This document shows positions 11,410-50,643 of a stretch of 51,356 nucleotides of DNA, piece by piece. Location: contig NZ_BBPQ01000058.1 of the NCBI RefSeq assembly GCF_000787855.1, positions 1-51,356 of the forward strand, written 5' to 3'. The position numbers and the translations under genes were made by a program. Origin of the DNA: Streptacidiphilus anmyonensis (GTDB lineage: Bacteria; Actinomycetota; Actinomycetes; Streptomycetales; Streptomycetaceae). The notes beneath the pieces are model-generated. The model ran no database searches. It worked only from the letters and a program-made list of their open reading frames with translations, and was not told the origin of the DNA. Numbering within the stretch: the first letter of the stretch is position 1; the number at the start of each line of letters is the position of its first letter.

Positions 11410-11438
11410 TTGCCTATGGCAATTATTGCTCAATGCAG
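11410..11438. promoter_or_regulatory. operator-like array of four half-sites upstream of the transaldolase-like gene
   Basis: Half-sites start every 8 bp: TTGCC (11410), GGCAA (11418), TTGCT (11426) and TGCAG (11434). The first two form the perfect palindrome TTGCC-TAT-GGCAA. It lies 52-80 bp upstream of the minus-strand start at 11358. The right half resembles the site before the phosphatase gene at 28111 in both sequence and flanks (ATTGCTCA then TGCA, then AGGTAG). It is judged a degenerate member of the TTGCA-N3-TGCAA set. Confidence 0.55.
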
Positions 11439-11572
11439 AGGTAGTGGCAAGGTCGAGCTCTTTGCCGCGACTCAACTCCACCCCCCGGCCGTCTGGTGAT
11501 GCTTTCCCGGTGTTTCGGGGCCGTCGATGCGCTCGTCCGCGCTCGATCATCAGGTCCGACACCCGCATTGCT

Positions 11573-11585
11573 TTGCATAGTGCAA
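11573..11585. promoter_or_regulatory. perfect TTGCA-N3-TGCAA operator-like palindrome
   Basis: TTGCA-TAG-TGCAA lies in the gap between two divergent genes, 71 bp before the ATG at 11656. A good -10 box, TATACT, starts at 11586 immediately after it on the + strand, so a bound protein would overlap the promoter core. No clear -35 box is seen at the usual distance. Confidence 0.7.
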
Positions 11586-11655
11586 TATACTGGAAGTCAG
11601 AAGATGAACCACCTCGGTCATCGTGATGTGTGACCGCCTCCGGGAGAAGAGCGCC

Positions 11656-12060
11656 ATGGTTCAGCCGGGCCTCCACGACACCGGGAAGCCCGAATCGGGT
11701 CTTGTCGATGCTGGGCGGTTGCGTGCCCGCGTACATGCCGGGGGAGTTGCGGCGCTGGAGCAAGTCCTGCTGCACTTCGCCGCGGAGGGCAGCCGCACCG
11801 AAGCCGCGGCAGCCGACCTCATCCGCGCCCTTCCGGACCTGGAGCCGTCCGACGCGACCAACGTGCTGGGCTTCACGCGGATCCGGGAGGAGCAGCGCCT
11901 TGTCGACCTCACCCCGTGGCAGCGAGGCGCTCTCGCGGTGGCTCTGGCCCACATGCCAACCGCTCCGCGGCAGCGGAGCGTCGACCGTGTCCGGCCGTCC
12001 AGCCCACGTAGCGTACGGCGGTCAGCTCGAGATGGCGATCCCAATGTTCTCGATATGTGA
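11656..12060 (+). CDS. hypothetical protein of 134 residues, divergent from the transaldolase-like gene
   Basis: ATG 11656 is chosen because GGGAGAAG lies 8-14 bp upstream; longer in-frame starts at 11623 have none. The first 100 residues look like a folded helical protein (GRLRARVHAGGVAALEQVLL, then LIRALPDLEPSDATNVLGFT) and the last 30 are basic and low-complexity. No family is recognised. The promoter region carries TATACT and the palindrome at 11573-11585, which links it to the putative regulon. Its tight divergence from the pseudo-transaldolase suggests joint control. Confidence 0.55.
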   Translation: MVQPGLHDTGKPESGLVDAGRLRARVHAGGVAALEQVLLHFAAEGSRTEAAAADLIRALPDLEPSDATNVLGFTRIREEQRLVDLTPWQRGALAVALAHMPTAPRQRSVDRVRPSSPRSVRRSARDGDPNVLDM

Positions 12061-12749
12061 GGCATGACCAGCACCGCAGGGGGTCAGGTCCGAGACGCGG
12101 TACCTAGGCCCGATCGGACGTTCGCGCCATGCGGACAGCCCCGCGCCTGCGCCTGGGCCGGACGACTGCAGCGTTGAGGCTGTCCCTTGCAATCAGGCCG
12201 TCAGTTGTTCTGCATCACGCGTCGCGCGTGCCCACCGTCGGCCGAAGAAATGGCCCGCTGCGGTCGAGGTATGGGGTGCAGCGCCACGGCGGTGCCGCGG
12301 GCCCGGAACTGCCGCGCCCGGGTACGTTTCCAGTGCCCTGAAAGCGACCGTCGGCTGCGCCCATGAGCGAAGGTCCGGGATGGACAGGCAGGCCGGCTGA
12401 CGAAATCCCTCGGTTCTGCTCTGGGCCGTCCGGCTGATTTGGAGGGTGTGATCCGAGCGGGGTCGGGATCCTGGCTGGGGTGGTCGGTACAGGATGGTCG
12501 TTGCGTCCGTGGCTTGGCATCCGTCATGCCGTGAAGGAGTCTCTTCGTGTTCGCCTGCATCGCACCGCCGTTCGAGGACCCGTTCATTCCAGCAGCCGTC
12601 CGTCACGGTCGTACTGTGCCTCGCGGGGGAAGCGCGAATGAGCTGGCGTGACACAAGGGCCTCGGGGCGCCCATCTCACCGAAAGCGGGGGTGCCTGAGG
12701 AGACCGCGTATGGCTCGGGGTGTGCGATGGCTGGCCCGGGGGTGACCCG
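12061..12749. other. stretch of about 690 bp without a convincing gene
   Basis: Several overlapping open frames exist on both strands but none has a ribosome site, a consistent third-position bias or recognisable protein sequence. One isolated TTGCA (12186-12190) has no partner half-site. The base composition is slightly less GC-rich than the genes nearby. It may hold decayed coding DNA; nothing specific can be named. Confidence 0.4.
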
Positions 12750-13277
12750 GTGGCGTCCCTGAGCGTACGTCCCCGCATGCCTTGGGATGCCTCCGCTCTC
12801 CTGACGCTGGTCAACGCCGACCGGCCGCCCGGCCAGCCCGAGACCGACACGATGACAGCCGGCCCGCGCTCGATCCAGCCCCCGTGCGGAGGATGGACGG
12901 TCGCCGTCACCCGTGACAGTCAAGGCGCCCTCGTCGCCGTGGTCCCGGCCCCGCTGACCGGGTTCGCGTGGACCGCCCTGGTGCGAGCCCTCCATGTCGA
13001 ACTGCGCCGACCGACACGGCATGCGGTTCTCGACCTCGGCCACTGGCCGTGGGATCGTGCGGCCTTCACCCCTGTGGTGTCCGTGTACCGGCTGTGCGCC
13101 GCGCACATGATCCACCACAGGTCAATGGGTGAACGGGCTGCGGCGCGATCTACTTTCCTGGGAGGAGAACCGGATTGCGGACCAGCCGCGACCCTGAAAC
13201 ACGTCGGCCGACGTCGCAGACAAAGGACACGTCGGCTCCCCGATGCGTCCCCGGCGATCGGCTCGCCGAGGGGGTGA
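12750..13277 (+). CDS. possible hypothetical protein, weak STAS-like resemblance
   Basis: A + frame with good codon bias runs from GTG 12750 (or ATG 12852) to 13277. The central part (GGWTVAVTRDSQGALVAVVP, then HAVLDLGHWPWDRAAFTPVV and SVYRLCAAH) faintly recalls a STAS-type strand-helix pattern, but this is not a safe assignment. Codon bias fades after about 13130, and the last 100 bp overlap the next gene in another frame. It may be an intact gene with an unusual tail or a gene shortened by a later event. Confidence 0.35.
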   Translation: MASLSVRPRMPWDASALLTLVNADRPPGQPETDTMTAGPRSIQPPCGGWTVAVTRDSQGALVAVVPAPLTGFAWTALVRALHVELRRPTRHAVLDLGHWPWDRAAFTPVVSVYRLCAAHMIHHRSMGERAAARSTFLGGEPDCGPAATLKHVGRRRRQRTRRLPDASPAIGSPRG

Positions 13278-13765: not shown

Positions 13766-15440
13766 GCACACCGGCGACGACAGCCTGCGTCCGCCGCAGT
13801 CCGGCTCGGGCGAAGGCACACCGGTCCCGTCCGGCATGGCCGAGCGCGTGCCGGGTCTGGTACGGGCGGCCGACGCGCGGCTGCCAGTGCTGGAGGGCGG
13901 CAAGCTGCTGCGCAAGCTTTTCCCGGATCACTGGTCGTTCCTGCTGGGGGAGTTGGCCCTCTACAGCTTCGTCCTTCTGCTGCTGACCGGGGTGTGGCTC
14001 ACCTTCTTCTTCCACCCCAGCATGCACGAGGTGGTCTACAACGGCAGCTACACCCCGCTGCTGGGCGTGCGGATGTCCGAGGCGTACCAGTCGACCCTGG
14101 ACATCACCTTCGACGTGCGCGGCGGCCTGCTGGTGCGGCAGATCCACCACTGGGCGGCCCTGCTGTTCGTCTCCGCCCTGGGCGTGCACATGCTGCGGGT
14201 CTTCTTCACCGGCGCGTTCCGGCGGCCCCGGGAGCTGAACTGGTCCGTCGGGGTGCTGCTCTTCCTCACCGCCGTGCTCGAGGGGTTCGCGGGCTACTCC
14301 CTCCCCGACGATCTGCTCTCCGGCACCGGCCTGCGTACCGCCGAGGGCATCGTCCTGTCGGTCCCCCTGGTGGGCACGTACCTGGCGATGTTCGTGTTCG
14401 GCGGCCAGTTCCCAGGGACGTCGATCGTCCCGCGCCTGTACGCCATGCACATCCTGCTCATCCCCGGACTGCTGCTCGCGCTGATCACCGTCCACCTGAT
14501 CCTGGTGTTCTACCTCCAGCACACCCAGTGGCCACGCCCCGGCCGGCGGCAGCGCAACGTCGTCGGCATCCCGATGTTCCCGCAGTTCGCCGCGCGCTCG
14601 ATCGGCCTGATGTTCACCCTCTTCGGGGTGGTGGCCGTGCTCTCGGCCGTGGCGCAGATCAACCCGATCTGGGTCTACGGCCCCTACCAGCCGGACCAGG
14701 CCTCCACCAACGCCCAACCGGACTGGTATGTAGGCTTCCTGGAGGGCGCCCTGCGGCTGATGCCGGGCGTGGAGACACGCTTCGCGGGCCACACCGTCTC
14801 CTGGTCGGTGTTCCTGCCGGCGTTGGTGCTGCCGGGTCTGCTGGCGGTGATCCTTCTCGCCTACCCGTTCGTGGAGCGCTGGGTGACAGGCGATGGGCGC
14901 GAGCACAACCTGTGCGACCGCCCCCGGGACCGGCCCACCCGGACGGGGCTGGGCGTGGCGGCGATCATCGCGTACGGCGTGCTGCTGCTCGCTGGCGGGC
15001 AGGACGTGATCTCCGACGCTCTGGCAGTGTCGGTCAACGAGCTCAACTGGGTACTGCGGGTCTGCTTCCTCCTCCTGCCCGTGGCCGCGTTCGTGGTCAC
15101 CAAGCGGATCTGCATCGGCCTCCAGTTGCACGAGCGGGAGCTGCTGACAGAAGGCGCAGAGACGGGGCTGATCAGGCAGGACCTCGCGGGCGGGTTCGAT
15201 GAGCCGAACCGGCCGCTGTCGGCGCAGCAGGCATGGGTGATGCTGCCCCGGGAGCCGCCCGGGAAGGTGGGCGCTGGCCCGCGCGGACGCTTCGGGCGCG
15301 CACTGAGGACCTGGTACTTCCGCGGCCAGGTGGCGCTGCCCGCGCGGGACGAGATCGTGGTGCGCCGTCCTAGCGCTCCGGCCGGCGAGCCGCCTCGGAC
15401 CGGTGCGTCGTCGCAGGATGCTCAGGAGTCGGAGCGCTGA
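13755..15440 (+). CDS. qcrB: cytochrome b subunit of a bc-type menaquinol:cytochrome c reductase
   Basis: ATG 13755 follows GAAGGGAG. The 561-residue protein has the layout of actinobacterial QcrB: eight or more membrane helices, paired haem ligands in helix B (QIHHWAALLFVSALGVHMLR) and helix D (HILLIPGLLLALITVHLIL), and the quinol-site PDWY motif (AQPDWYVGFLEGA) where many families have PEWY. The usual partners, Rieske QcrA and cytochrome QcrC, are absent here, so this is a stand-alone copy that would need them from elsewhere. It converges on the ctaD-ctaF pair, with stops overlapping by 19 bp. It probably moves electrons from menaquinol towards the oxidase. Confidence 0.85.
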   Translation: MTTEHTGDDSLRPPQSGSGEGTPVPSGMAERVPGLVRAADARLPVLEGGKLLRKLFPDHWSFLLGELALYSFVLLLLTGVWLTFFFHPSMHEVVYNGSYTPLLGVRMSEAYQSTLDITFDVRGGLLVRQIHHWAALLFVSALGVHMLRVFFTGAFRRPRELNWSVGVLLFLTAVLEGFAGYSLPDDLLSGTGLRTAEGIVLSVPLVGTYLAMFVFGGQFPGTSIVPRLYAMHILLIPGLLLALITVHLILVFYLQHTQWPRPGRRQRNVVGIPMFPQFAARSIGLMFTLFGVVAVLSAVAQINPIWVYGPYQPDQASTNAQPDWYVGFLEGALRLMPGVETRFAGHTVSWSVFLPALVLPGLLAVILLAYPFVERWVTGDGREHNLCDRPRDRPTRTGLGVAAIIAYGVLLLAGGQDVISDALAVSVNELNWVLRVCFLLLPVAAFVVTKRICIGLQLHERELLTEGAETGLIRQDLAGGFDEPNRPLSAQQAWVMLPREPPGKVGAGPRGRFGRALRTWYFRGQVALPARDEIVVRRPSAPAGEPPRTGASSQDAQESER

Positions 15441-15901
15441 GGGCCGCGGTCCTGGGGTGGGCCCTCCGGGTGCAGGGACTCGCCGGGCATGGGCACCGAC
15501 GGCTCCCCGCCGGGGTACTGCCGGTCGGGAAACTGGGCCAGGCTCTTCCAGATGGAGAACAGCAGAAGGGCCCCGCCGATCCAGCACACCCACAGCTCGA
15601 TGACGAAGCCGAGCAGGACGAGGGCCACGCCGACGCCGGCGAGCGGCGGGTAGGGGCTGTGCGGGGCGAAGAACGTCAGCGGACCGGCGCTGTCGATGAT
15701 CTCGCCGTCCTTGCGGTCCTGGGCGCGCGTGCCGCGGCGACGGTACTGGACCTGACAGTAGAAGGCGATCAGCCCCGACATCAGCACGCAGACGATCAAC
15801 GCGACTTTGCCCGCGTTCTCGTGGGCGTAGGCGCCGTAGACCCCAGCGGCGGCCGCGAAGAACACCGCGATTCCGGCGAACAGCAGCGATTCCGCCTTCA
15901 C
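15422..15901 (-). CDS. ctaF: cytochrome c oxidase subunit IV (CtaF-like)
   Basis: GTG 15901 overlaps the ctaD stop in a GTGA arrangement, which indicates translational coupling. The 159-residue product begins with two membrane helices ([40 protein letters not shown]), has a short loop, then two more near residues 90-120 ([20 protein letters not shown]), like the small actinobacterial subunit IV. The last 35 residues form a Pro/Glu-rich tail. Its only clear job is structural support of the aa3 oxidase. The gene ends inside the 3' end of qcrB on the other strand. Confidence 0.75.
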
Positions 15902-28110: not shown

Positions 28111-28123
28111 TTGCTCAGTGCAA
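28111..28123. promoter_or_regulatory. TTGCT-CAG-TGCAA operator-like site before the phosphatase gene
   Basis: It differs from the perfect palindrome by one base (TTGCT for TTGCA). It lies 54 bp before the ATG at 28178. The wider sequence, AAT-C-ATTGCTCA then G-TGCA-A-AGGTAG, matches the array at 11421-11443 at all but three positions, including the AGGTAG that follows, so the two are probably copies of one element. Confidence 0.55.
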
Positions 28124-28177: not shown

Positions 28178-29281
28178 ATGCGTGTACCCCGGCGGCCAGA
28201 CGTGCTTGCGGCTGTCCCCTTCGCTGCGATGGCGCTTGTCACGGCCGGGGATGTGGCGGCAGGGCCTGACGTGGGCCTGTTGCCACTCTTTTCGGTCGGC
28301 CCCGCGTTCGCCGCCGCGGCCGGACCTCCCCGTCGGGCCGCGCTCGTGGGCTGCGTCGCCGTGGGCTTGTGTCTGGCCGTCGCTTGGTACGACGGCCTCC
28401 TCGACGCCCGCCGGGGATGGGTCGCCTTCGCGGCGGTCGTAGGTGTCACTGCGGCGGCCGTGCTTGCCGCGGTGCTGCGTCGGCGCACCGAACGGGAGCT
28501 CGCCGACATCACCTCCGTCGCCGAGGCCGCGCAGCGCGTGCTGCTGCGACCGGTGCCGAGGACCGGCGGCCCGATGCGGATCGCCGTCTCCTACACCTCG
28601 GCGACCGCAGCCGCGCGCATCGGCGGCGACCTCTACGAGGTCGTCCCCGCGTCCGGGGGCACCCGCGTCATTGTCGGAGACGTGCAGGGCAAGGGACTGG
28701 AAGCGGTGGAGACTGCGGCCGTCGTGCTCGCGGCCTTCCGCGAGGCGGCGCCGGAGGCCGTCATGCTGGACGAGGTCGGAGACCGCCTCGAACGCGCTCT
28801 CAACCGACGGCTGGAGGGTGAGGAGTTCGTCACCGCGATCCTCGCCGAAGTGGAGCCGGACCACACGGTGATGCTGCTCAACTACGGGCACCCCGCGCCA
28901 CTCGTCCTGCGGCCCGACGCCGAGCCCGAACTCGCCGCTCCCGACCGTCCCGCAGCCCCGCTGGGCCTCGCCGATCTGGGCCCCGAGCGACCGAAACCGC
29001 ACCGCATCAGCCTGCGCCCGGGCGAGCAACTCCTGCTCTACACCGACGGCGTCATTGAGGCGCGCGACGAGTGCGGAGTCTTCTATCCGCTGGTCGAGCG
29101 CGCCGGCCTGCTCGCCGAACCGGACCCCGACCGTGCCCTGGCGGCCCTTCGGCGGGACCTGGTCGCCCACGTCGGAGGCCCGCTCAAGGATGACGCGGCC
29201 ATGCTGCTCCTTCGCTACCGCGAGGCGGTGGTTCCGGCTCAGGGGCCGGAGCCGGGTCGGCGTCAGGAGGCCGAGTCCTGA
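28178..29281 (+). CDS. membrane-bound PP2C (SpoIIE/RsbU-type) serine phosphatase
   Basis: The 367-residue product starts with three predicted membrane helices (residues about 10-95), a short linker helix, and then a PP2C/SpoIIE domain: RIGGDLYEVVPASGG (about 146), VIVGDVQGKGLEAV (about 165), LLLYTDGVIEARDE (about 285) and KDDAAMLLLRY (about 340). The four metal-binding Asp sites are kept, so it should be active. Such enzymes remove phosphate from STAS anti-sigma antagonists in partner-switching pathways. A STAS gene is right next to it, converging with a 19-bp overlap. Control by the site at 28111 is probable. No sensor domain other than the membrane part is seen. Confidence 0.85.
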   Translation: MRVPRRPDVLAAVPFAAMALVTAGDVAAGPDVGLLPLFSVGPAFAAAAGPPRRAALVGCVAVGLCLAVAWYDGLLDARRGWVAFAAVVGVTAAAVLAAVLRRRTERELADITSVAEAAQRVLLRPVPRTGGPMRIAVSYTSATAAARIGGDLYEVVPASGGTRVIVGDVQGKGLEAVETAAVVLAAFREAAPEAVMLDEVGDRLERALNRRLEGEEFVTAILAEVEPDHTVMLLNYGHPAPLVLRPDAEPELAAPDRPAAPLGLADLGPERPKPHRISLRPGEQLLLYTDGVIEARDECGVFYPLVERAGLLAEPDPDRALAALRRDLVAHVGGPLKDDAAMLLLRYREAVVPAQGPEPGRRQEAES

Positions 29282-29682
29282 GACCTGGTGCGTACGGGAG
29301 TCTGCTGGGTCGGATCGGACCGCTGGTGCGTCACCGACGCCCCCTCCGGGGCGACGGCATCAGCGGTGGCCTCGAAGACGTCGAAGATCCGCTCGATGCC
29401 GCAGGCTGTCAGCGCCTTGCGTGCCACCGAGTCCTCGGCGGGCAGGACCAGGCGCAACTGGCCGCCCGCCGAAGCCATCTGGCGCCGCGTGGCGACCAGC
29501 GCCCCGAAGCCGAGGGAGTCGCAGAAGCTCAGTCGGCTGAGGTCCACCACGAGTCTGCGGCTGCCGCTCCAGATCACTGTGGCCAGTCGCTCGCGCACCG
29601 CCGCGACGGCCTGCAGGTCCAGCTCACCCTCCAGTTGGGCGATCGTCCAGCCGTGTCGCTCACCGTAGGTCACCTGCGTCAT
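29263..29682 (-). CDS. STAS-domain anti-sigma factor antagonist
   Basis: ATG 29682 follows GGAAGGAGGG. The 139-residue product has one STAS domain: YGERHGWTIAQLEGELDLQA, VVDLSRLSFCDSLGFGALVA with the Ser that is normally phosphorylated (about residue 57), and LVLPAEDSVARKALTACG. A flexible acidic/basic tail of about 25 residues follows. Dephosphorylated antagonists bind the anti-sigma kinase and release a sigma factor. The neighbouring phosphatase is the natural partner; neither a kinase nor a sigma gene is present in the window. A perfect palindrome at 29764-29776 lies 82 bp upstream. Confidence 0.8.
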   Translation of the reverse strand: MTQVTYGERHGWTIAQLEGELDLQAVAAVRERLATVIWSGSRRLVVDLSRLSFCDSLGFGALVATRRQMASAGGQLRLVLPAEDSVARKALTACGIERIFDVFEATADAVAPEGASVTHQRSDPTQQTPVRTRSQDSAS

Positions 29683-29763: not shown

Positions 29764-29776
29764 TTGCATTATGCAA
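29764..29776. promoter_or_regulatory. perfect TTGCA-N3-TGCAA operator-like palindrome before the STAS gene
   Basis: TTGCA-TTA-TGCAA. On the minus strand the centre reads CATAAT, a good -10 box. An ATG occurs 8 bp after it (29758), opening a 26-codon frame whose stop overlaps the STAS start codon (ATGA). So this site may be both operator and promoter core, with a short leader peptide coupled to the STAS gene. Confidence 0.65.
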
Positions 29777-32172: not shown

Positions 32173-32319
32173 GATCGGTGGGAGGGTCCAAGTCCGAGGA
32201 GGGGCGGGCGCGCTCGGGAGAGGCGCCCGCCGGCGATGTGTACGGGTACGCGCCCTGCCGGAGCGGTGGCGGTGCCGCGAAGGGGCGGGACCGTGTCGGA
32301 GGTGACGGCGTCAGGACGG

Positions 32320-34594: not shown

Positions 34595-34685
34595 CCCCTG
34601 CATCCTCCCACCAGGCGATCCGACCGCCGGGACCGGGGGAGCAGCAGCCGCTGTCACCGCCGACCCCTGGCGCTATGACGGTGGA

Positions 34686-35372: not shown

Positions 35373-35404
35373 CGAAGAGTCTCTCTCGTTCATGTGGGCG
35401 TGCC

Positions 35405-35629
35405 TCACTGGCCGGATATGGTCTTGTCCAGGGCGAGCTCGACGGCGGCGCCCAGCGCGATGGCGCCGGCGATCAGCAGGAGCCAGGCGTAGGCCCGGCT
35501 CGCCCCGGCCCATGACGCGGGCTGGTGCGACGGTCCGTCCGGCGAGGTGCCTGGGACGTCGTCGGTCCCTGCCGTCTCCGGCAATTGAGTGGTCGCGTCC
35601 GTGTTCGTCGAGGGGTCTCTGCCGTTCAC
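35405..35629 (-). pseudogene. partial duplicate of the VKOR gene (N-terminus and first helix)
   Basis: The frame starts at GTG 35629, or at GTG 35644 overlapping the DsbA stop, and stops at 35405. The 74 residues repeat the start of the VKOR protein next to it: PDGPSHQPASWAGASRAYAW against PDGPSHQPASWAGPSRAYAW, then GAIALGAAVELALDK against GAIALGAAIQLTLDK. It breaks off at the end of the first membrane helix (ISGQ). So a tandem duplication of the VKOR 5' end took place and the front copy lost the remainder. It may still be translated as a one-helix protein. Confidence 0.75.
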
Positions 35630-35640
35630 GAGGCGGTGGC

Positions 35641-36498: not shown

Positions 36499-36626
36499 GG
36501 CCGTCCTCACAGACGCGAAAAAGGGGCAGGAAGGTGAGGAACCGGGCTGGCGAGCGTGCGCAGGCACGCCTCAGGGCACGGGGCCCCGGACGACCAGAGG
36601 GGATCAGAAGGAGGAAACGGCGCCGC

Positions 36627-39479: not shown

Positions 39480-39500
39480 TTGCACCCTGCAAATATTGCA
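39480..39500. promoter_or_regulatory. three-half-site operator before the nitroreductase gene
   Basis: TTGCA-CCC-TGCAA (39480-39492) is a perfect palindrome, and a third half-site TTGCA (39496-39500) follows in 8-bp phase. The array ends 31 bp before the ATG at 39531. The same three-part order occurs at 40307-40327. Confidence 0.7.
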
Positions 39501-39530: not shown

Positions 39531-40028
39531 ATGGCCAGGAGGGTCCGTCCGTCCGCGGGGCCCACGGGGTGGCGGCGCACGATGTTCCGTGCCCCGGTCC
39601 GGCTGTACCGGTGGCACCTGGGGTGGCTGCTGGGATCTCGGTTCTGCCTGCTCACGCACACGGGCCGGAGCACTGGTCGACCGCGTCAGACGGTTCTGGA
39701 GGTAGCGGGGCGTGATCCGGACACCGGGGCGATCCTCGTCGCATCCGGGTTCGGTCGTGCGTCACAGTGGTACCGGAACATCTGCCAGGATGCCCGTGTC
39801 CATGTGCGGGTCGGGCGCCGCAGCAGCGAAGCGCTCGCCCGGCCGTTCACGCCGGACGAGTCAGGTCGTGCGATGGCGCTCTACGCGTCCCGCCATCCGC
39901 GGGCCGCGCGGCAACTGCTGCGCGTGTGCGGCGTGGAAGCCGGTGTCGACGGGGAGGACTTCTACGCTGTCGGCCATGACTTCATTCCGTTCGTCGCGCT
40001 GACGCCGACCGGCGCGTTCCTGGAGTAA
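39531..40028 (+). CDS. deazaflavin (F420)-dependent nitroreductase family protein
   Basis: ATG 39531 with GGAGGGG upstream; 165 residues. The Ddn-type split barrel is recognised from FCLLTHTGRSTGRPRQTVLE (about 45-64), DTGAILVASGFGRASQWYRN (about 71-90) and GVDGEDFYAVGHDFIPFVAL at the end. Members use F420H2 to reduce nitro compounds, quinones or similar. The operator array sits just upstream, placing it in the proposed regulon; quinone protection would fit a respiratory stress response. Confidence 0.8.
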   Translation: MARRVRPSAGPTGWRRTMFRAPVRLYRWHLGWLLGSRFCLLTHTGRSTGRPRQTVLEVAGRDPDTGAILVASGFGRASQWYRNICQDARVHVRVGRRSSEALARPFTPDESGRAMALYASRHPRAARQLLRVCGVEAGVDGEDFYAVGHDFIPFVALTPTGAFLE

Positions 40029-40306: not shown

Positions 40307-40327
40307 TTGCACCATGCAAACCTTGCA
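40307..40327. promoter_or_regulatory. three-half-site operator before the deacetylase-like gene
   Basis: TTGCA-CCA-TGCAA (40307-40319) followed by ACC and a further TTGCA (40323-40327). It lies about 98 bp before the ATG at 40425. A weak -10-like GATGAT follows directly after the array on the + strand, with TTGCAC as a possible -35, 16 bp apart. Confidence 0.7.
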
Positions 40328-40424
40328 CGATGATGAGATTGCGCCGGGCGGGGCATCCGCAGGGCGTCGGCCGGGCTGTGCTCGTGCACCATGCCTGGTC
40401 GCCGATGCGGCACCAAGGAGCACC

Positions 40425-41693
40425 ATGTCCGAGTATTCCCGCCGCGGTGTGGTGACCGCTGCCGCGGCAGCCGCGACTGCGGCTGTCGTTTCCGGCTGCG
40501 GCGACGAGAAACCCCCGAGTGGTCAGGCTGCACCCCGTGGTACGACCCCGGGATCTCAGGACCGAAGCACCGTCCGGCCGGCCAGTCTGATCGGGGACGG
40601 CTCGATGGCCGACACCGGCCCCCAGCCGCACCAACCCGTGCCGCGCCGGCTCGAACCCGGCGAGCGTCCGCCGCAGTTCGTGGTCTTCTCCTGGGACGGG
40701 GCGGGCGAGGACAGCAAGCAGCTGTTCTCGCACTTCCGCTCGGTCGCCCAGGAGGTCAAGGCGACGATGTCGTTCTTCCTGTCGGGCATCTACGTGCTGC
40801 CCGAGGGCAAGAAGGACCTCTACCTGCCGCCCGGCCACAAGCCCGGCGCGTCCGACATCGGCTACCTCGCCGACAACCACGTCAAGGCGACCCTCGAGCA
40901 GGTCCGCCAGGCGTGGCTGGAGGGACACGAGATCGGCACCCACTTCAACGGCCACTTCTGCAGCCCCACCACCGGCGTCGGCAACTGGACGGCCGCGCAG
41001 TGGCGCAGCGAGCTGGAGCAGGCGGTCGGCTTCGTCGAGAAGTGGAAGACCAACACCGGCTTCCACGACATGGACCCGCTGCCGTTCGACTACCGCAAGG
41101 GGCTGATCGGCGGCCGCACCCCGTGCCTGCTGGGCCAGAAGCAGCTGCTGCCGACGGCCGCGGCGATGGGCTGGAAGTACGACGCCAGTTCACCCGGCGG
41201 GTTGCAGATGTGGCCAGGCAAGAAGCTCGGGCTGTGGGACTTCCCGCTGCAGTCCATCCCCTTCCCCGGGCACCACTTCCAGGTGCTTTCGATGGACTAC
41301 AACATGCTCGCCAATCAGACCGGCGGCACGCCGAACGGCGATCCGTCCAAGCGCCCTTACTGGCAGCAGGAGTCGTACCTGTCGTACATGGCCGGGTTCC
41401 ACCGTGCCTACACGACCAACCGGGCGCCGTTCTTCATCGGCAACCACTTCGAGTCGTGGAACGGCGGCATCTACATGAAGTCCGTCGAGCGGGCACTGCG
41501 CGAGATCGCCGCCAAGCCCGACGTGCGCCTGGTGTCCTTCCGGCAGCTGGTCCAGTGGCTCGAGGTCCAGGATCCCTCCGTGCTCGCCCGGCTTCGCACG
41601 CTCGATCCTGGACAGTCCCCGGGGGACTGGCGCGACTACACCGGAGGTGCGCCGACCGCTCCCAAGGCCGGCAGGGCTCCTGCCCGTGCGTGA
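40425..41693 (+). CDS. polysaccharide-deacetylase-like lipoprotein
   Basis: ATG 40425 follows CAAGGAG; 422 residues. The start MSEYSRRGVVTAAAAAATAA with VVSGC suggests a Tat-exported lipoprotein. The core resembles NodB/polysaccharide deacetylases: FVVFSWDGAGEDSK in place of the usual TFDDGP (one Asp kept) and LEGHEIGTHFNGHF with the two metal His (about residue 168). The middle and end (WDFPLQSIPFPGHHFQVLSM, PFFIGNHFESWNGGIYMKSV) fit a larger actinobacterial branch without known substrate. It would act on cell wall or capsule. The operator array upstream links it to the regulon. Confidence 0.75.
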   Translation: MSEYSRRGVVTAAAAAATAAVVSGCGDEKPPSGQAAPRGTTPGSQDRSTVRPASLIGDGSMADTGPQPHQPVPRRLEPGERPPQFVVFSWDGAGEDSKQLFSHFRSVAQEVKATMSFFLSGIYVLPEGKKDLYLPPGHKPGASDIGYLADNHVKATLEQVRQAWLEGHEIGTHFNGHFCSPTTGVGNWTAAQWRSELEQAVGFVEKWKTNTGFHDMDPLPFDYRKGLIGGRTPCLLGQKQLLPTAAAMGWKYDASSPGGLQMWPGKKLGLWDFPLQSIPFPGHHFQVLSMDYNMLANQTGGTPNGDPSKRPYWQQESYLSYMAGFHRAYTTNRAPFFIGNHFESWNGGIYMKSVERALREIAAKPDVRLVSFRQLVQWLEVQDPSVLARLRTLDPGQSPGDWRDYTGGAPTAPKAGRAPARA

Positions 41694-41718
41694 CCCGGGG
41701 TGTTCGCTCCTCTCGGGC

Positions 41719-42234
41719 CTACCAGCCCAGCACGTCGAGCTGGCGCTGCCCGGGGTCGGGCTCACCACTGGCATCGGCGAAGGCGCGCAGAGCCTGGACA
41801 AGGCCGACCCGGTGCTCGGCGGGCATGCGGTCGATGATCTCGGCGATGTCGGCACGACGGCGCTCCGTCGCTTCGACGACCGTGTCGGCGCCCTTGTCGG
41901 TGAGGGCGATGCTCACCTCACGCCGGTCCTGCGCATTGGTCTCACGCACCACCATGCCAGCGGCGATCAGGCGGTCGATCATCCGCATCGCCGTGGACGG
42001 GTTGACCGCGAGCTGCTCGGCCAGACGGGAGAGGTTCATGCCACCGCGACTGTGCAGTAGTACCAGCATCCGAAACTGAGGCAGCGTCAGGGTCTCCGCG
42101 GTCGACCCGAGGGACCGGGCGGAGATGGCCACCAGTACGCGTGAGGCGGTCAGGACAGCGGTCACCAGATCCTGCTCCTCGACGGTGGGAGCGGGAGCCT
42201 TCTTGGTGCGAGCGTGGTGGCGATCGTCGGACAT
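41719..42234 (-). CDS. MarR-family transcriptional regulator
   Basis: The 171-residue product has the MarR winged helix: LTLPQFRMLVLLHSRGGMNL, SRLAEQLAVNPSTAMRMIDR, LIAAGMVVRETNAQDRREVS and IALTDKG. AGAAAGGA precedes the start. It lies in the middle of the genes carrying TTGCA-N3-TGCAA, and MarR proteins often bind 5-base half-sites such as TTGCC/GGCAA, so it is a candidate for that operator. Its own promoter gap (42235-42301), however, has no such site but a CATAAT -10 box, and MarR genes usually repress themselves, so the link is only tentative. Confidence 0.85.
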   Translation of the reverse strand: MSDDRHHARTKKAPAPTVEEQDLVTAVLTASRVLVAISARSLGSTAETLTLPQFRMLVLLHSRGGMNLSRLAEQLAVNPSTAMRMIDRLIAAGMVVRETNAQDRREVSIALTDKGADTVVEATERRRADIAEIIDRMPAEHRVGLVQALRAFADASGEPDPGQRQLDVLGW

Positions 42235-42301: not shown

Positions 42302-43180
42302 TCAAGAGGCCGGAACGACGGCGACAGGGCAGCGGGCATGCTGGACGACTTCCGGGACGAGCGAGCTGAGACGGCTGAGTGCTTGGGCGGGATGCCCGCG
42401 GCGGCCGACCACGACCAGGCGCGCCCGCTGGGACAGTCTGGCCAGGTAGTGGGCAGGGTCGGCGTGCAGCGCCTCCGGATGCAGCTTCACCTCGGGATGC
42501 CGCGCCTGCCAGGGCGCGAGTAGCCGGTACAGGCGCATCTCCTGCTCGACCCGCAGGTGCATCTCGTCGGCGGGAGGTCGACCGCGGTCGGGGCCGTGCA
42601 TCGCACCGGGTTGCCATGTATGAATCACGCGCAACGGAGCGCCCTCCCGTACGGCGGCCTCGAATGCGAAGGTCAGGGCTGACTCGTCCGGATCATGTCC
42701 GTCGATTCCCAAGATGATCGGCCCGTCCAGGCGGGTGGGCGTGTGATCGGAGCCGCCCTCGGGGACCACCACGACGGCGCACCGCACCGCAGAGGCTGAG
42801 TACAGGGTCGCTGATCCACTGGGTTTCCCCACGGAGCCTTGGGGCTGACGTGCGCCGACAACGAGGAGCTGCGCCTCACTCGACTGGATTTCCAGTGCCT
42901 TCCGAGGGTCGGTGTCCACCAGCTCGGAGGTGAGCAGCAGGCCAGGATGCCTGGCTTGAACGCGCAGGGTGACTTCCCCGAGAAGTTGGCGGGCGTCGTT
43001 CTTGAGAACGTCCCCAGGCAGGCCCATGGCATCTTGGTCGAAGGCGCAAGTCCAGGTTGTGACCAGGTGCAAGGGTGCGCAGCGCAGCACGGCTTCCTGT
43101 GCGGCCCAGTCGAGGGCACGACTGGGCCTTGCGGGGTGGTCGATGTCGACGGTGACGGCGAAGGTGGCCCTGGAGGACAA
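42302..43180 (-). CDS. universal stress protein with two UspA domains
   Basis: TTG 43180 is chosen because AAAGGAGCG lies just upstream; the frame continues further but crosses the divergent promoter. The 292-residue product has two UspA domains: residues about 1-140 (FAVTVDIDHPARPSRALDWA, LLVVGARQPQG) and 150-292 (IILGIDGHDPDESALTFAFE, LVVVGRRGHPAQALSRLSSL). The nucleotide loop GxxG is kept in part. In actinobacteria such proteins rise in hypoxia or stationary phase. It is divergent from the ClC gene, with the three-half-site operator between. On its own strand TTGCAT and CATACT, 16 bp apart, could be its -35 and -10. Confidence 0.85.
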   Translation of the reverse strand: MSSRATFAVTVDIDHPARPSRALDWAAQEAVLRCAPLHLVTTWTCAFDQDAMGLPGDVLKNDARQLLGEVTLRVQARHPGLLLTSELVDTDPRKALEIQSSEAQLLVVGARQPQGSVGKPSGSATLYSASAVRCAVVVVPEGGSDHTPTRLDGPIILGIDGHDPDESALTFAFEAAVREGAPLRVIHTWQPGAMHGPDRGRPPADEMHLRVEQEMRLYRLLAPWQARHPEVKLHPEALHADPAHYLARLSQRARLVVVGRRGHPAQALSRLSSLVPEVVQHARCPVAVVPAS

Positions 43181-43259
43181 CGCGCGCTCCTTTCGTGTCG
43201 GCTGACAGCGACTGCTGCGCGGGGGTGTCTCGGTAAGTGGACCCTCTTTTTTAGTATGG

Positions 43260-43280
43260 TGCAAGCATTGCATAATGCAA
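43260..43280. promoter_or_regulatory. three-half-site operator between the USP and ClC genes
   Basis: TGCAA (43260), TTGCA (43268) and TGCAA (43276) stand in 8-bp phase; the last two make the perfect palindrome around TAA. It can serve both divergent genes: on the + strand its core CATAAT lies 7 bp before ATG 43284, on the minus strand TTGCAT-N16-CATACT gives a promoter for the stress protein. The site and its flanks are nearly the same as at 49352-49386. Confidence 0.75.
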
Positions 43281-43283: not shown

Positions 43284-45101
43284 ATGAATGCCCAGCTCGC
43301 TGCAGCCCCGCCCGCGACCGTGACCCAACGGGCGACGACCTTCCTCCGCACCTCCAAAGGGGGACTGGCCGTACTCGCGCTCGTCATCGGCGCGGGCGCC
43401 GGTCTGGGCGCGGTCGTCTTCCGATGGCTGATCAAGACGTTCACCCAGTTGCTGTCCGGCCATGGCGACTACTCCGCCGCCGGACACGCCGCCAACCCGC
43501 ACGTGCCTTTCCTCGGGCCCTACTTCGTCGTCCTCGCGCCAGTGGTGGCTGGCCTGCTCTACGGGCCTCTGGTGCAGCGCTTCGCCCGCGAGGCGCGCGG
43601 CCACGGCGTCCCGGAGGTCATGTACGCCGTCGCCCGCCGCGGCGGACGGATCGCCCCGCAGGTCGCCGGAGTGAAGGCGCTGGCCTCCGCGCTGTGCATC
43701 GGCGGCGGCGGATCGGTGGGCCGCGAGGGCCCGATCGTGCAGATCGGCTCCGCGCTCGGGTCCACGCTGGGGCAGATAGCGAAGCTGTCGGAGTCCCGGA
43801 TCAAGATGCTGGTCGCCTGCGGCGCGGCCGGCGGCATCGCCGCAACCTTCAACGCCCCGCTGGCCGGGGTGTTCTTCGCGATGGAGCTGATCCTGCGCGA
43901 CTTCGCCGCCGAGTCCTTCGGCATGGTCGTCCTGTCCTCGGTCACCGCCTCCGTCATCGGCCGCTCCATGTTGGGCGACACCCCCTTCATCACCCTGCCG
44001 GCCTTCCACGTCCAGCACCTCGCCCAGTACGGCCTGTTCGCCCTCCTGGGCCTGCTCGCGGGACTGGTCGGGGTCGGCTTCAACAAGGTCCTCTATCGGA
44101 TCGAGGACGCCTGCGACGCCGTCTGGCGCGGTCCTGAATGGGCCCGCCCCGCCGTCGGCGGTCTGCTGCTCGGCCTTCTGCTCCTGGTGCTGCCGGAGAT
44201 GTACGGCGTCGGCTACCCGGTCCTGGAGCACGCCCTGGCCGGCGGGTACGCGCTGCTGTTCCTGCTCGCCCTGCTGGTCGGCAAGACGATCGCCACCTCG
44301 CTGACCATCGGCATCGGCGGCTCCGGCGGCGTCTTCGCGCCCAGCCTCTTCGTCGGCGCGATGCTCGGCTCCGCTTTCGGTCAGGGCGCCCACCAGCTCA
44401 TGCCGTCGATCGCCGGGTCGGCGGGGGCTTACGGGATCGTCGGCATGGGTGCCGTCTTCGCCGGTGCCGCCCGCGCACCCATCACGGCCGTCGTGATCCT
44501 CTTCGAACTGACCGGCGAGTACAGCATCATCCTGCCGCTCATGGCCGCGATCGTGATCGCGACCGGCGTCAGCCGCCTGCTCAGCTACGAGAACATCTAC
44601 ACCGCCAAACTGATGCGCCGCGGCATCGACCTCGACGCCCCCGTCGACCCCGCCGACGCCCTCACCGTCGCCCAGGCCATGACCGGAGCCGCGCACTCGC
44701 TCTTGGACAGCACCCCGCTCGCCCAAGCGCCACGGGCACTCGCCCACGACCGACATGGCATCGTCCCGCTTACCGGCCCGGACGGCTCCTACAGGGGCGC
44801 GGTCCACGCGCACGACCTCATGCGCGCCCTCGCCGACGGAGCCGACCCCGCCACACCCGTGGCGAAGTTCGCCGACACCGACCACCCCACAGCGCTGCGG
44901 GACGCCTCCCTCGCGTCGGCGCGCGACCTCCTCGGCACCGCAGGCACCAGCGGACTGCCGGTCCTGGACCGTGAGGGCGATGGCCACCTGGTGGGGTGGA
45001 TCGACCACAGCGCCATCCTCCACGCGCTCCACCACAGCTCGGCGGGCGAACACCCGGTCGGCCTCCACCTGGTCGCGCCCGTCCACACCACCGACCGCTG
45101 A
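43284..45101 (+). CDS. ClC-type chloride channel/transporter with CBS domains
   Basis: ATG 43284 is preferred over ATG 43275, which lies inside the operator; 605 residues. The ClC filter motifs are present: GGGSVGREGPIVQIGSALGS (gating Glu in GREGP, about residue 155) and GSGGVFAPSLFVG (about 345), preceded by RWLIKTFTQLL and ending the membrane part near FELTGEYSII. The gating Glu suggests chloride/proton exchange. Residues about 450-590 form two CBS domains (DALTVAQAMTGAAHSLLDST; PTALRDASLASARDLLGTAG) that often bind nucleotides. The start lies 7 bp after a CATAAT box, so the mRNA may be leaderless. Confidence 0.9.
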   Translation: MNAQLAAAPPATVTQRATTFLRTSKGGLAVLALVIGAGAGLGAVVFRWLIKTFTQLLSGHGDYSAAGHAANPHVPFLGPYFVVLAPVVAGLLYGPLVQRFAREARGHGVPEVMYAVARRGGRIAPQVAGVKALASALCIGGGGSVGREGPIVQIGSALGSTLGQIAKLSESRIKMLVACGAAGGIAATFNAPLAGVFFAMELILRDFAAESFGMVVLSSVTASVIGRSMLGDTPFITLPAFHVQHLAQYGLFALLGLLAGLVGVGFNKVLYRIEDACDAVWRGPEWARPAVGGLLLGLLLLVLPEMYGVGYPVLEHALAGGYALLFLLALLVGKTIATSLTIGIGGSGGVFAPSLFVGAMLGSAFGQGAHQLMPSIAGSAGAYGIVGMGAVFAGAARAPITAVVILFELTGEYSIILPLMAAIVIATGVSRLLSYENIYTAKLMRRGIDLDAPVDPADALTVAQAMTGAAHSLLDSTPLAQAPRALAHDRHGIVPLTGPDGSYRGAVHAHDLMRALADGADPATPVAKFADTDHPTALRDASLASARDLLGTAGTSGLPVLDREGDGHLVGWIDHSAILHALHHSSAGEHPVGLHLVAPVHTTDR

Positions 45102-45117
45102 CCCGGACAGCCTGCTT

Positions 45118-48210: not shown

Positions 48211-49221
48211 TCAGCTCTCAGGCGGAGTGCCTGCGTATCGGTGCGCCAGGCGGGCGTCTGTCTCCCACCAGGGCCGGGGATCCTCCTCCGCGGACTCTGT
48301 CCCCGACCCCTGTGACGTCCCGGCTGGAGCCGAACCACGTTGCTGCTCCTGGCGGTCGAGTTCTTCATCCACCTCCCTGGTGCGGTCCTTCTCCTCTTTC
48401 AGGACGCGGACGATCAGAGCGGCCATGAACGGGACCCCGGCGATGTCGCCGAGCCCCCACAGCACGGCCCCACCCCACTTCTGGTCCACGGCAGGGGTCC
48501 AACCCCAGGGTCGGTGGAGCGAGCTCCAGTAGTGGGGGAGCAGGACATGACCGCCGAATACCAGGACGCAGCCCAAGGCCGCATCGAAGATCACTTCGGC
48601 CACGGTGATCACGACCCCGATGAGCGGGTGGTAGCGGCGCGGCACCGGATCGACCTGGAGCCGAGGCCAGAAGTAGGCAAGGCCGAACCCGACGAACCCG
48701 ACGTGGAACGCGGCGTTCCAGACGGCGGTGGTGAGGGAGAGCGCGTACCACGGTGTGAAGTAGAACAGCCACGGAGGCGCGATCAGCAGCACCGTCGAGA
48801 CCAGAGGAAACATCAGGATCCTGGACAGGCGCCCTGACAGGGCGGCCTCCAGTCGGCTCGCTGTCCAGGGCGACGCGCTGCGCACCATCAAGCTGACCGG
48901 CGCACCGAGCGCAAGCAGGAGCGGTACCAACATGAGCAGGAGCACTGCCTGCACGGCCCGGTCGGTGAACAGCACCCGTTCGTAGACACCGAGCCCGGAG
49001 CAGCACACGGTGATCCAGAGCCCCAGCCCGCCGAAGAACGCGAGCATGCGCGCCGGGCTCCATGTACCACCGCCCCGGGCAAGGCGGAACGCGGAGATCA
49101 GGTACCACGCCGCAGCCGCCGTGCTGATGGCGAGGACGGCCGGCTCGACCTGCCAGTCGGTGGCCATGCGCGACAGGTCCCAGGCTGGCGGTCCGCTGTA
49201 GGCGAGAAGGCGCATCATCAC
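48211..49221 (-). CDS. second CtaG-type membrane protein
   Basis: GTG 49221 or ATG 49218 starts a protein of about 336 residues with seven helices, similar in layout to the CtaG at 29834-30886: LLLMLVPLLLALGAPVSLMV, WLFYFTPWYALSLTTAVWNA, AAFHVGFVGFGLAYFWPRLQ, and then a helix with HVLLPHYW. It lacks the Met-rich N-terminus of the first CtaG and has a charged tail of about 60 residues (EEKDRTREVDEELDRQEQQR). It probably helps oxidase copper assembly or an alternative terminal oxidase. A three-half-site operator lies 139 bp upstream, with a minus-strand promoter TTGCAT-N16-CATAAT. A 28-codon leader frame ends on its start codon. Confidence 0.8.
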   Translation of the reverse strand: MMMRLLAYSGPPAWDLSRMATDWQVEPAVLAISTAAAAWYLISAFRLARGGGTWSPARMLAFFGGLGLWITVCCSGLGVYERVLFTDRAVQAVLLLMLVPLLLALGAPVSLMVRSASPWTASRLEAALSGRLSRILMFPLVSTVLLIAPPWLFYFTPWYALSLTTAVWNAAFHVGFVGFGLAYFWPRLQVDPVPRRYHPLIGVVITVAEVIFDAALGCVLVFGGHVLLPHYWSSLHRPWGWTPAVDQKWGGAVLWGLGDIAGVPFMAALIVRVLKEEKDRTREVDEELDRQEQQRGSAPAGTSQGSGTESAEEDPRPWWETDARLAHRYAGTPPES

Positions 49222-49734
49222 TCCGGAGTCCGGGAGTTCGGGTATCGGCGGGTCGCGCGAGCCGCGCGGGGGAGAAGGGCGCCAGCCGGAAGGGGCGCCA
49301 TGAGGCCTGCTCCAGGGAGGTCATGGCCGATGTCGCTCGCGAACCCCTTCCTATTATGGTGCAAATATTGCATAATGCAATGCATGATCCGCGGCTCACC
49401 CCGACACCGCACAGCGTGCTGTTGCGGAAGGCAACATCCTTCCCGCATACGGCAAGGGCGGCCGGTTTCCGTGGCGTTCCCAGTGGTGCTTCACCGGCCC
49501 CCGGGATGCCTGTGCGGCGCACGTGTGCCCGCCAGGGCGCCCGACGGCTCGATGACCGGTCGCTGTTGGGGCAGCCGCTCGCGGTTGGACCGCCAAGGGA
49601 CTTGCCTTCCTGTGCAGTTACGGCAGGCACCGACGTCTTCGTGTTGCCGGCAGCTTCGACGGTCGGCTCGACCTCCGGGCGATCCTTCACGCCCCTTCTC
49701 CACACGCCACGTACCGAAAGCCCCAGGCCCTCCC
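49222..49734. other. 513-bp gap between the second CtaG gene and a small membrane-protein gene
   Basis: It contains the operator at 49360-49380 and probably divergent promoters. On the + strand, an open frame starts at ATG 49384, 7 bp after CATAAT, and runs in frame into the small protein starting at 49735, but its sequence is Cys- and Arg-rich without codon bias, so it is more likely a leader. On the minus strand a 28-codon frame (starting MAPLPAGALLPRAARATRRY) overlaps the CtaG start. Confidence 0.4.
49360..49380. promoter_or_regulatory. three-half-site operator upstream of the second CtaG gene
   Basis: TGCAA (49360), TTGCA (49368) and TGCAA (49376) in 8-bp phase, TAA in the palindrome centre. 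The region 49352-49386 matches the USP/ClC intergenic region at most positions, including TATGG before and GCATGA / GTATGA after. The minus strand carries TTGCAT-N16-CATAAT, the best promoter match for CtaG. Confidence 0.75.
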
Positions 49735-49983
49735 ATGCCTACTGACACGAACACCTCGCACGCCTCGCGGCCTGCGCCTAACAGTCCAGCCGGCCTGTCG
49801 GACGGTCGACAGGGACCCGCTGACCCACCCCGACCCTCGGCGGAATGGCTCTCCGTGCTCGCGGGGCTGGCAGCGCTTGCGATCTTCGTCGGGCTCGCAC
49901 TGTCGGCGGCAAAGGCCCACTCACCAGCCAGCGGGCCGGGCCATGGCCCGGTGCTCCGCCCCGGCCACCGTCAGCGTCGGTGA
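49735..49983 (+). CDS. small single-helix membrane protein
   Basis: ATG 49735 opens 82 residues with one membrane helix (WLSVLAGLAALAIFVGLALS) after a hydrophilic Pro/Ser-rich N-terminal half, and a His/Gly-rich tail (GHGPVLRPGHRQRR). It has no strong ribosome site. The long upstream frame is considered leader or noncoding. It could be a small accessory protein; function unknown. Confidence 0.4.
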   Translation: MPTDTNTSHASRPAPNSPAGLSDGRQGPADPPRPSAEWLSVLAGLAALAIFVGLALSAAKAHSPASGPGHGPVLRPGHRQRR

Positions 49984-50085
49984 GCCCCTCCGCCCCAGGA
50001 GCTGTCGAGCCGGACGCGCGCGCACTTCGCCCACCGGTCAGACCCTCCGTTCGTCTCTGGGAATCAGGAGTGGGCGAAGTCATCC

Positions 50086-50628
50086 TCAGCCCCGGACCAC
50101 AACGGCTCGGAGGTGCACCAGGCCTGCCACGCCGAACTCCAGAAGCAAGGGCAGGGACTTCGCCCCAGAGCTGACGACGATGTCGTGCAACTCGATTCGC
50201 GGACCGCCGCTGTCGAAGCGTGTCGTAGCGCCGGGGTTGAGGAGGATTCCGTCGGGGGAGAGCGAGCCGTTGTCGTCGCCGACGCCGACGAGGGTAGCCC
50301 TTGCCCCGCCCGGAGCCGACACCATGGCCAGGTGTTCCGGGACGCTGCTGTCGTTGCGCACCACCATGGTCAGCTCGCCATTGCCTGAGGCGCTGAGGCG
50401 GGCCGCTGCGTCCGTGATGGTGAGGCGTGTGGTGGGCCCCGTGGTGGTTGCGTAGCCTGCGCCGGAGCTGGCCGACGGGGCACTCCTCGGAGTGCTTGCC
50501 CCCGATGACGCGGTCGCCGTGCCAGGCCGTGGCGATGTGGCGGTTGAGCAGCCCGCTGCCACTGCCAGGACGCACGCGGCAGCTGCGACGGTCCGCACGG
50601 TCTGAGGGAGGGTACGGAAGCCATTCAT
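50086..50628 (-). CDS. small secreted lipoprotein, PCuAC-like fold suspected
   Basis: ATG 50628 is preferred over ATG 50643, which lies inside the palindrome; 180 residues. It has a lipobox (VLAVAAGC), a Ser/Ala/Thr-rich linker and a beta-rich domain of about 110 residues (LTMVVRNDSSVPEHLAMVSA, GILLNPGATTRFDSGGPRIE, LHDIVVSSGAKSLPLLLEFG). The strand order recalls PCuAC copper chaperones, and His/Met residues occur at EHLAM and ELHD, but the exact H-M...HxM ligand set is not clear. The palindrome lies 3 bp before the start with CATAAT as -10, so the mRNA would be leaderless. Confidence 0.65.
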   Translation of the reverse strand: MNGFRTLPQTVRTVAAAACVLAVAAGCSTATSPRPGTATASSGASTPRSAPSASSGAGYATTTGPTTRLTITDAAARLSASGNGELTMVVRNDSSVPEHLAMVSAPGGARATLVGVGDDNGSLSPDGILLNPGATTRFDSGGPRIELHDIVVSSGAKSLPLLLEFGVAGLVHLRAVVVRG

Positions 50629-50630
50629 CT

Positions 50631-50643
50631 TTGCATTATGCAA
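50631..50643. promoter_or_regulatory. perfect TTGCA-N3-TGCAA palindrome at the start of the lipoprotein gene
   Basis: TTGCA-TTA-TGCAA on the + strand; on the minus strand the centre is CATAAT and the ATG at 50628 comes 6 bp later. The two flanks extend the symmetry (CATCT before, AGATG after). The placement is the same as at the ClC gene. Confidence 0.7.

What the first reader, a model, noticed from the sequence alone, without database searches (positions are those of the whole stretch)
11410..50643. A local regulon marked by the palindrome TTGCA-N3-TGCAA
The exact sequence TTGCA-N3-TGCAA is seen seven times (11573, 29764, 39480, 40307, 43268, 49368, 50631), always in a gene start or an intergenic gap; one-mismatch and degenerate forms are at 28111 and 11410. 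With 15% each A and T and 35% each G and C, about 0.01 exact matches are expected in 51 kb. The genes behind them (PP2C phosphatase, STAS antagonist, F420-type nitroreductase, deacetylase-like lipoprotein, universal stress protein, ClC channel, CtaG, small lipoprotein, pseudo-transaldolase and its neighbour) make sense as one stress/respiration response. I know of no described actinobacterial operator that fits exactly.
Basis: partly seen in the sequence, partly recalled or inferred. Interest (0 to 1): 0.9.

Follow-up and report, generated by a model that had tools for sequence, protein, structure and literature searches.

The report
MarR operator of a local regulon
A short mirror-image DNA word marks the switches of a cluster of stress and transport genes in an acid-loving soil bacterium, and genome comparison points to a repressor encoded in the same cluster, related to a tuberculosis-bacterium protein linked to acid stress, as the protein that reads it.

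Summary
TTGCA-N3-TGCAA occurs seven times in the window (0.009 expected) and once more in the 9.39 Mb genome; all seven are intergenic. In 60 loci of its relatives there are 61 exact sites (0.18 expected); 29 of the 41 site-bearing loci have one just before or behind marR. In 200 Streptomycetaceae genomes marR carriers average 2.46 sites, non-carriers 0.28; a reversed control differs little. The commonest other target is a ClC chloride transporter: all 33 ClC carriers carry marR. STAS, SpoIIE, USP, F420-reductase and PCuAC-like genes recur. The operator centre, CATAAT, looks like the ClC -10 box, so repression by promoter occlusion is likely. The closest solved relative, Rv1404, is cited as an acid-stress regulator and the genus is acidophilic, so acid or chloride as signal is a reasoned guess; the hypoxia/respiration theme is hardly supported. 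No report of this operator in actinobacteria was found in the open library searched. Nothing was tested at the bench.

The parts
11410..11422 (.). degenerate site TTGCCTATGGCAA, 58 bp before the called start of the transaldolase-like gene; unsupported by relatives
11573..11585 (.). exact operator before the transaldolase-like gene; no support from relatives
10144..11358 (-). transaldolase-like gene (an in-frame ATG at 11568, directly behind the 11573 operator, is an alternative start; my reading)
28111..28123 (.). one-mismatch operator TTGCTCAGTGCAA, same form as the second operators at marR promoters; before the SpoIIE phosphatase gene
   Evidence: SpoIIE-family genes have exact sites in 3 other genomes
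28271..29281 (+). SpoIIE/PP2C-type phosphatase
29263..29682 (-). STAS anti-sigma-factor antagonist
29764..29776 (.). exact operator before STAS; centre reads CATAAT on the STAS strand
   Evidence: site also at STAS genes of 4 other genomes
39480..39492 (.). exact operator before the F420H2-dependent reductase, with third half-site TTGCA at 39496-39500
   Evidence: site at this gene family in 5 other genomes
39531..40028 (+). F420H2-dependent quinone reductase / deazaflavin nitroreductase family
40307..40319 (.). exact operator before the deacetylase-like lipoprotein gene, with third half-site TTGCA at 40323-40327
   Evidence: site at this gene family in 2 other genomes
41719..42234 (-). MarR-family regulator, proposed reader of the operator; no cysteine
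42302..43180 (-). universal stress protein, first gene of the presumed USP-marR operon
43259..43264 (.). third half-site GTGCAA, 3 bp upstream of the 43268 operator
43268..43280 (.). exact operator between USP-marR (-) and ClC (+); CATAAT at its centre on the ClC strand
43284..45101 (+). ClC chloride transporter with CBS domain; ATG 3 bp behind the operator
48211..49215 (-). CtaG (caa3 oxidase assembly factor)
   Evidence: a Saccharopolyspora locus also has the site before a homologue
49368..49380 (.). exact operator before CtaG, with third half-site at 49360-49364; CATAAT follows on the CtaG strand
50086..50628 (-). PCuAC-like lipoprotein (weak Pfam match, below cut-off); ATG 2 bp behind the operator
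50631..50643 (.). exact operator directly before the PCuAC-like lipoprotein
   Evidence: site at this gene family in 2 other genomes

Best explanation
TTGCA-N3-TGCAA is the operator of the MarR-family repressor encoded at 41719-42234. The dimer is proposed to bind the palindrome, which sits on or beside the -10 box of its target promoters, and to block transcription of a local regulon: its own USP-marR operon, a ClC chloride transporter, an F420H2-dependent reductase, STAS/SpoIIE sigma-factor regulators, a deacetylase-like lipoprotein, CtaG and a PCuAC-like lipoprotein. A second, weaker operator or half-site 8, 16 or 22 bp away, present at part of the sites, probably allows two dimers to bind. 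A signal, most likely low pH or a linked ion or weak acid, releases the repressor. Shown by sequence: sites, positions, gene families, co-occurrence. Inferred: binding, repression, signal (acid or chloride about 0.45).
For: 61 exact sites in 60 marR loci (named Streptomycetaceae, Pseudonocardiaceae and Thermomonosporaceae, and one metagenome bin), 0.18 expected, reversed control 0; 41 of 60 loci have a site, 23 of them 29-183 bp before the marR match and 6 more 491-606 bp behind its start. In the genus, the 8 of 14 genomes with a close marR hold 42 sites, the 6 without hold 2. In 200 Streptomycetaceae genomes 56 of 68 marR carriers have a site against 29 of 132 others; three or more in 21 of 68 against 1 of 132; control means 0.49 and 0.56. 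ClC (E <= 1e-100) in 33 of 200, all 33 with marR, 32 of 33 with the motif. 67 of 68 sites lie outside called genes, 40-bp margin. In gene orientation the operator centre is TAA (CATAAT) at 16 of 22 ClC targets and TTA at none; 11 of the 22 ClC starts lie 6-10 bp behind the site centre. Closest solved relative is Rv1404, cited as acid-stress regulator (passages); its neighbours Rv1403c and Rv1405c are listed as raised by high chloride and acid pH. The genus grows at pH 3.5-6.5 (passage).
Against: No binding or expression data. 12 of 68 marR carriers have no exact site, 29 of 132 non-carriers have one or more, and 19 of 60 marR loci have none. Of 40 more distant marR loci only 4 hold an exact site, and six loci of the Rv1404 group show a different promoter block, so Rv1404's function may not carry over. 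16 of 36 target clusters have a single target, some of them small doubtful ORFs. No histidine or cysteine column is conserved. The ClC has Leu where ClC-ec1 has its internal proton glutamate (alignment; role recalled), so it may be a channel and not an acid-extruding exchanger. FAD monooxygenase genes would also fit an aromatic ligand.
Confidence: 0.82

Rival explanations
1. The sites are read by another regulator (the TetR at 24695, an AtsR-like TetR, or a factor encoded on another contig), and marR is only a co-travelling target.
For: The motif also lies before TetR genes in two Actinomadura loci. Corynebacterium AtsR, a TetR protein, binds TGCAA-N2-TTGCA (passages). 29 of 132 genomes without marR have at least one site.
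Against: The loci were gathered by marR alone and 41 of 60 carry the motif. Non-carriers have no more sites than the reversed control (0.28 against 0.56). AtsR's half-sites face the other way with another gap. The window's TetR sits beside ABC transporter genes and has no site. Other regulators of these genomes were not searched for.
Confidence: 0.1
2. Same MarR operator, but the signal is an aromatic or phenolic compound, with ClC and USP as part of a detoxification response, not an acid response.
For: Many MarR proteins bind aromatics (recalled). FAD-binding monooxygenase genes lie next to marR or behind sites in L074, L102, L108 and L166.
Against: The most frequent non-regulator target is a ClC transporter, not a degradation enzyme. 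The nearest characterised relative is tied to acid stress.
Confidence: 0.3
3. A LuxO/sigma-54 type enhancer system, since the consensus is letter-for-letter the LuxO site.
For: LuxO consensus TTGCA-N3-TGCAA. Five matches to the sigma-54 activator domain PF00158 exceed its cut-off in this genome.
Against: No sigma-54 DNA-binding domain (PF04552) was found in this genome, while 4 of 14 control genomes have one. The PF00158 matches are weak (best E 1.8e-7) and that search rings in all 14 controls, archaea included, so it is not specific.
Confidence: 0.01
4. Chance or a repeat family spread by mobile DNA.
For: Transposase genes lie in the window.
Against: 0.009 expected against 7. The flanks of the 68 sites are all different. 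The same target families recur in other genomes.
Confidence: 0.01

Closest known systems
Rv1404 of Mycobacterium tuberculosis (MarR family, PDB 2nyx)
   Same: Closest solved relative (E 1.6e-36). A methyltransferase gene lies behind an operator in the Streptacidiphilus melanogenes locus, as methyltransferase genes flank marR in two loci of the Rv1404 group.
   Different: No exact operator in the Rv1404-group loci looked at; another block, seen by eye, stands in six of them.
MarR-type repressors with short palindromic operators (MarR, SlyA, MexR, AdcR; recalled)
   Same: Winged-helix MarR protein, inverted-repeat operator near its own promoter, divergent target.
   Different: Seven exact operators spread over 39 kb around the gene; at part of the sites a half-site at 8 bp or a second operator at 16 or 22 bp.
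AtsR (TetR family) of Corynebacterium glutamicum
   Same: Same 5-bp half-site letters, TGCAA (passages).
   Different: TGCAA-N2-TTGCA: half-sites in the opposite order, gap of 2; TetR protein, drug response.
LuxO operator of Vibrio qrr genes
   Same: Identical consensus letters.
   Different: LuxO works with sigma-54, not found in this genome. Chance likeness.
ClC-ec1 / ClcA H+/Cl- exchanger
   Same: The target belongs to the family and keeps the gating glutamate (GREGP).
   Different: GHGVPEV in place of GSGIPEI, Leu at the internal proton glutamate, extra CBS domain.

Membership tests
MarR family | MarR winged-helix domain | tested here: met
   PF01047, 62.5 bits, cut-off 24.6
MarR family | binds a palindromic operator at its own promoter | tested here: inconclusive
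   palindrome 29-183 bp before marR in 23 of 60 loci; binding not tested
named MarR families of NCBIfam (HpaR, OhrR, Rv0880, SlyA, AdcR and others) | score above the curated cut-off | tested here: not met
   16 families matched, all below cut-off
Rv1404 (acid-stress MarR) | closest sequence kin among solved proteins | tested here: met
   E 1.6e-36 against 2.2e-11 for the next
Rv1404 (acid-stress MarR) | same operator at Rv1404-type promoters | tested here: not met
   no exact site in the Rv1404-group loci, different block. One-mismatch sites in neighbouring loci L102, L108, L117. Rv1404's own promoter was not available by name
Rv1404 (acid-stress MarR) | acid-responsive regulon | not testable with these tools
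   needs expression data at low pH
OhrR/MosR-type thiol sensor | reactive cysteine | tested here: not met
   no cysteine in the protein; no column with cysteine in more than 5 of 60 near rows
LuxO regulon | sigma-54 dependence | tested here: not met
   PF04552 not found in the genome
AtsR regulon | operator TGCAA-N2-TTGCA | tested here: not met
   the window's operator is TTGCA-N3-TGCAA
ClC H+/Cl- exchanger | gating and internal glutamates | tested here: inconclusive
   gating glutamate present, internal one replaced by Leu

The most novel reading that the evidence does not exclude
An acid/chloride-response island of acidophilic actinomycetes, gained and lost as a unit: one MarR protein reads a composite operator placed on -10 boxes of leaderless genes, and through SpoIIE/STAS also switches a sigma-factor partner system. 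Its regulator is kin to a mycobacterial acid/chloride-response regulator, so the module would show how pH and chloride sensing spread across actinobacteria.
Probability: 0.25. Interest if true: 0.7.

Novelty: new member of a known kind. Interest (0 to 1): 0.52.

Why it matters
It gives a regulator, an operator and a target list for a regulon that I did not find described, present in part of the Streptomycetaceae and in other actinobacterial families, with a ClC transporter as its most frequent partner. It offers an entry to acid adaptation in acidophilic actinomycetes; two genome papers on such organisms, searched for MarR, chloride and acid-stress or acid-tolerance terms, held nothing that bears on it. 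The kinship to Rv1404, whose neighbours rise with acid and chloride, makes a shared pH/chloride response testable in harmless soil bacteria.

Tried and rejected
A LuxO-like system was rejected because sigma-54 was not found. Thiol sensing was rejected for want of a cysteine. A histidine pH switch was looked for and no conserved histidine found. An identical operator in the Rv1404 group was looked for and not found. Literature: paper searches showed no actinobacterial report of this operator; most hits were seen as listings only, and passages were read. Healy et al. 2016 was not seen: only its title and citing sentences. A genome-wide one-mismatch count was not run because tens of chance matches would be expected (own estimate).

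Caveats on counts: loci include duplicates of one place (L040/L176, L063/L178), so its ClC counts are slightly inflated; genome numbers that I give for target families are my tally of its listing, window included unless said otherwise. The 200-genome tests ignore shared ancestry; without the window's genus Mann-Whitney p is 3e-16 and Fisher p 8e-15. marR carrier means E <= 1e-30; weaker MarR matches (E <= 1e-10) occur in all 14 genomes of the genus. Gene calls are from my own simple caller. rest on tables transcribed by hand. (40391-42079) and one protein each (40391-41693) were in a wrong frame for the 40425 gene; replace them, again without a family match.
Full report
Observation. Seven exact TTGCA-N3-TGCAA sites are present at the coordinates given, plus one one-mismatch site at 28111 and a degenerate one at 11410, one of four non-exact TTGC-N5-GCAA forms. 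The expectation for exact sites is 0.009. No other TTGCA/TGCAA spacing between 0 and 24 occurs. The window is a whole contig of a 9.39 Mb genome with only one further site. That eighth site, at the 5' edge of a BrkB-family gene, shares its 13-mer with two congeners lacking a close marR, so it may be unrelated.

Organism. Three genomes of its genus match named Streptacidiphilus contigs by length and marR place (for instance 266,089 bases, S. melanogenes), so I take the genus to be Streptacidiphilus.

Regulator. The window holds one MarR gene, 41719-42234, 67 bp behind a USP gene whose promoter region carries the 43268 site. Searching by this protein alone fetched 60 loci. They contain 61 exact sites against 0.18 expected and no reversed-control site; 41 of 60 loci have a site, 23 with one 29-183 bp before the marR match and 6 more with one 491-606 bp behind its start; 19 have none. 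In 14 genomes of the genus, the 8 with a close marR hold 42 sites and the 6 without hold 2. In 200 family genomes, 56 of 68 marR carriers against 29 of 132 others have a site, mean 2.46 against 0.28, while the reversed control gives 0.49 against 0.56. On a tree of 101 MarR rows the motif label is clustered (15 changes against 32.0 in shuffles, 0 of 500 as low) and occurs in Streptomycetaceae, Pseudonocardiaceae and Thermomonosporaceae rows; several rows have long, unsure branches. Among 40 more distant loci only 4 have an exact site, though TTG-N7-CAA stays the commonest TTG/CAA spacing near marR (14, next 5).

Targets. Of 68 sites in window plus 60 loci, 67 lie outside called genes with a 40-bp margin. 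ClC and MarR are the two largest target groups (20 and 21 loci). In a second set with further genomes, F420H2-dependent reductase (6 genomes), STAS (5), USP (5), deacetylase-like (3), PCuAC-like (3) and SpoIIE (3, window not counted) genes recur, while 16 of 36 target clusters have a single target. A Saccharopolyspora locus has the site between ClC and a CtaG homologue. Thus six of the seven exact window sites have a same-family target in another genome; the transaldolase-like gene does not. ClC at E <= 1e-100 occurs in 33 of 200 genomes, all 33 marR carriers, 32 of 33 with a site; the other 35 marR carriers have a site in 24. By the coordinates, 28 of the 33 have ClC within 5 kb of marR (my reading of the tables). 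In the genus the same 8 of 14 genomes have ClC and marR.

Operator anatomy. The consensus of 68 sites is about wTTGCA-YNR-TGCAAw. Around 121 distinct sites there are 14 near-matches at 22 bp, 6 at 16 bp, 27 in all against 3 in shuffles, and 23 half-sites TGCAA 3 bp outside. Of the 14 sites in the 22-bp form, 13 lie 103-183 bp before marR in Streptomyces, Actinacidiphila and one metagenome bin. The half-site form is that of the window's 39480, 40307, 43268 and 49368. One unnamed distant genome has TAGCACTATGCAA-tga-TTGCACTTCACAA before its marR, opposite an F420H2-dependent reductase gene. In gene orientation the centre is TAA (CATAAT) at 16 of 22 ClC targets and TTA at none, and in 11 of 22 the ClC start stands right behind the operator. 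The PCuAC-like lipoprotein at 50628 is built the same way. I infer that the operator holds the -10 box of leaderless genes and that MarR binding occludes it. On the USP and CtaG sides the outer half-site runs into CATACT and CATAAT.

Signal. The best solved relative is Rv1404. Citing papers describe it as coordinating adaptation to acid stress through Rv1405c (passages; the original was not seen). A table in PMC3616970 lists Rv1403c and Rv1405c as raised by high chloride and by acidic pH (passage). Streptacidiphilus grows in general at pH 3.5-6.5 (passage). Against an easy transfer: loci of the Rv1404 group, two of them with a 274-aa methyltransferase gene beside marR, lack the motif, and six share another block, seen by eye. 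The ClC target lacks the internal glutamate of ClC-ec1. So acid or chloride is the favoured signal, not a shown one; an aromatic ligand is the main rival.

Known operators. The letters equal the LuxO consensus of Vibrio, but sigma-54 was not found here. Corynebacterium AtsR, a TetR protein, binds TGCAA-N2-TTGCA: same half-site, other order and gap. No report of this operator in actinobacteria turned up in the open library.

Verdict. What it lacked was the regulator; comparative evidence for the MarR is strong, evidence for the signal moderate. It is a new member of a known kind, MarR repressor plus operator, with an operator and target set that I did not find described.

Noticed in passing
L099, L100, L104, L105, L111, L112 (marR promoters): A different shared block (roughly AGTATNNNTAGGAAATAATC, read by eye) stands before marR genes of the Rv1404 group, possibly that group's own operator.
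   Followed up: partly
ClC genes of genomes G013, G018, G019, G094: The ClC match is crossed by one TGA in each of these four genomes; broken genes or assembly errors.
   Followed up: no
window 29834-37295: A run of minus-strand genes (DyP peroxidase, PCuAC, VKOR, DsbA-like and unknowns) looks like an envelope copper/disulfide operon without an operator site before it.
   Followed up: no
window 413-2310 and 8772-9623: IS110-, DDE- and IS4/5-type transposase genes lie in the left part of the contig, which may bear on how the island moved.
   Followed up: no
L166:16914-18101, L074:8907-10001, L102:4568-5812, L108:2677-4050: FAD-binding monooxygenase genes next to marR or behind sites in several genera.
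   Followed up: partly
L001:1501-1513: Eighth exact site of the genome, at the 5' edge of a BrkB-family gene; same 13-mer in two congeners without a close marR.
   Followed up: partly
window 15081-15646: ARAGORN calls a tmRNA overlapping the cytochrome b gene end; probably false.
   Followed up: no
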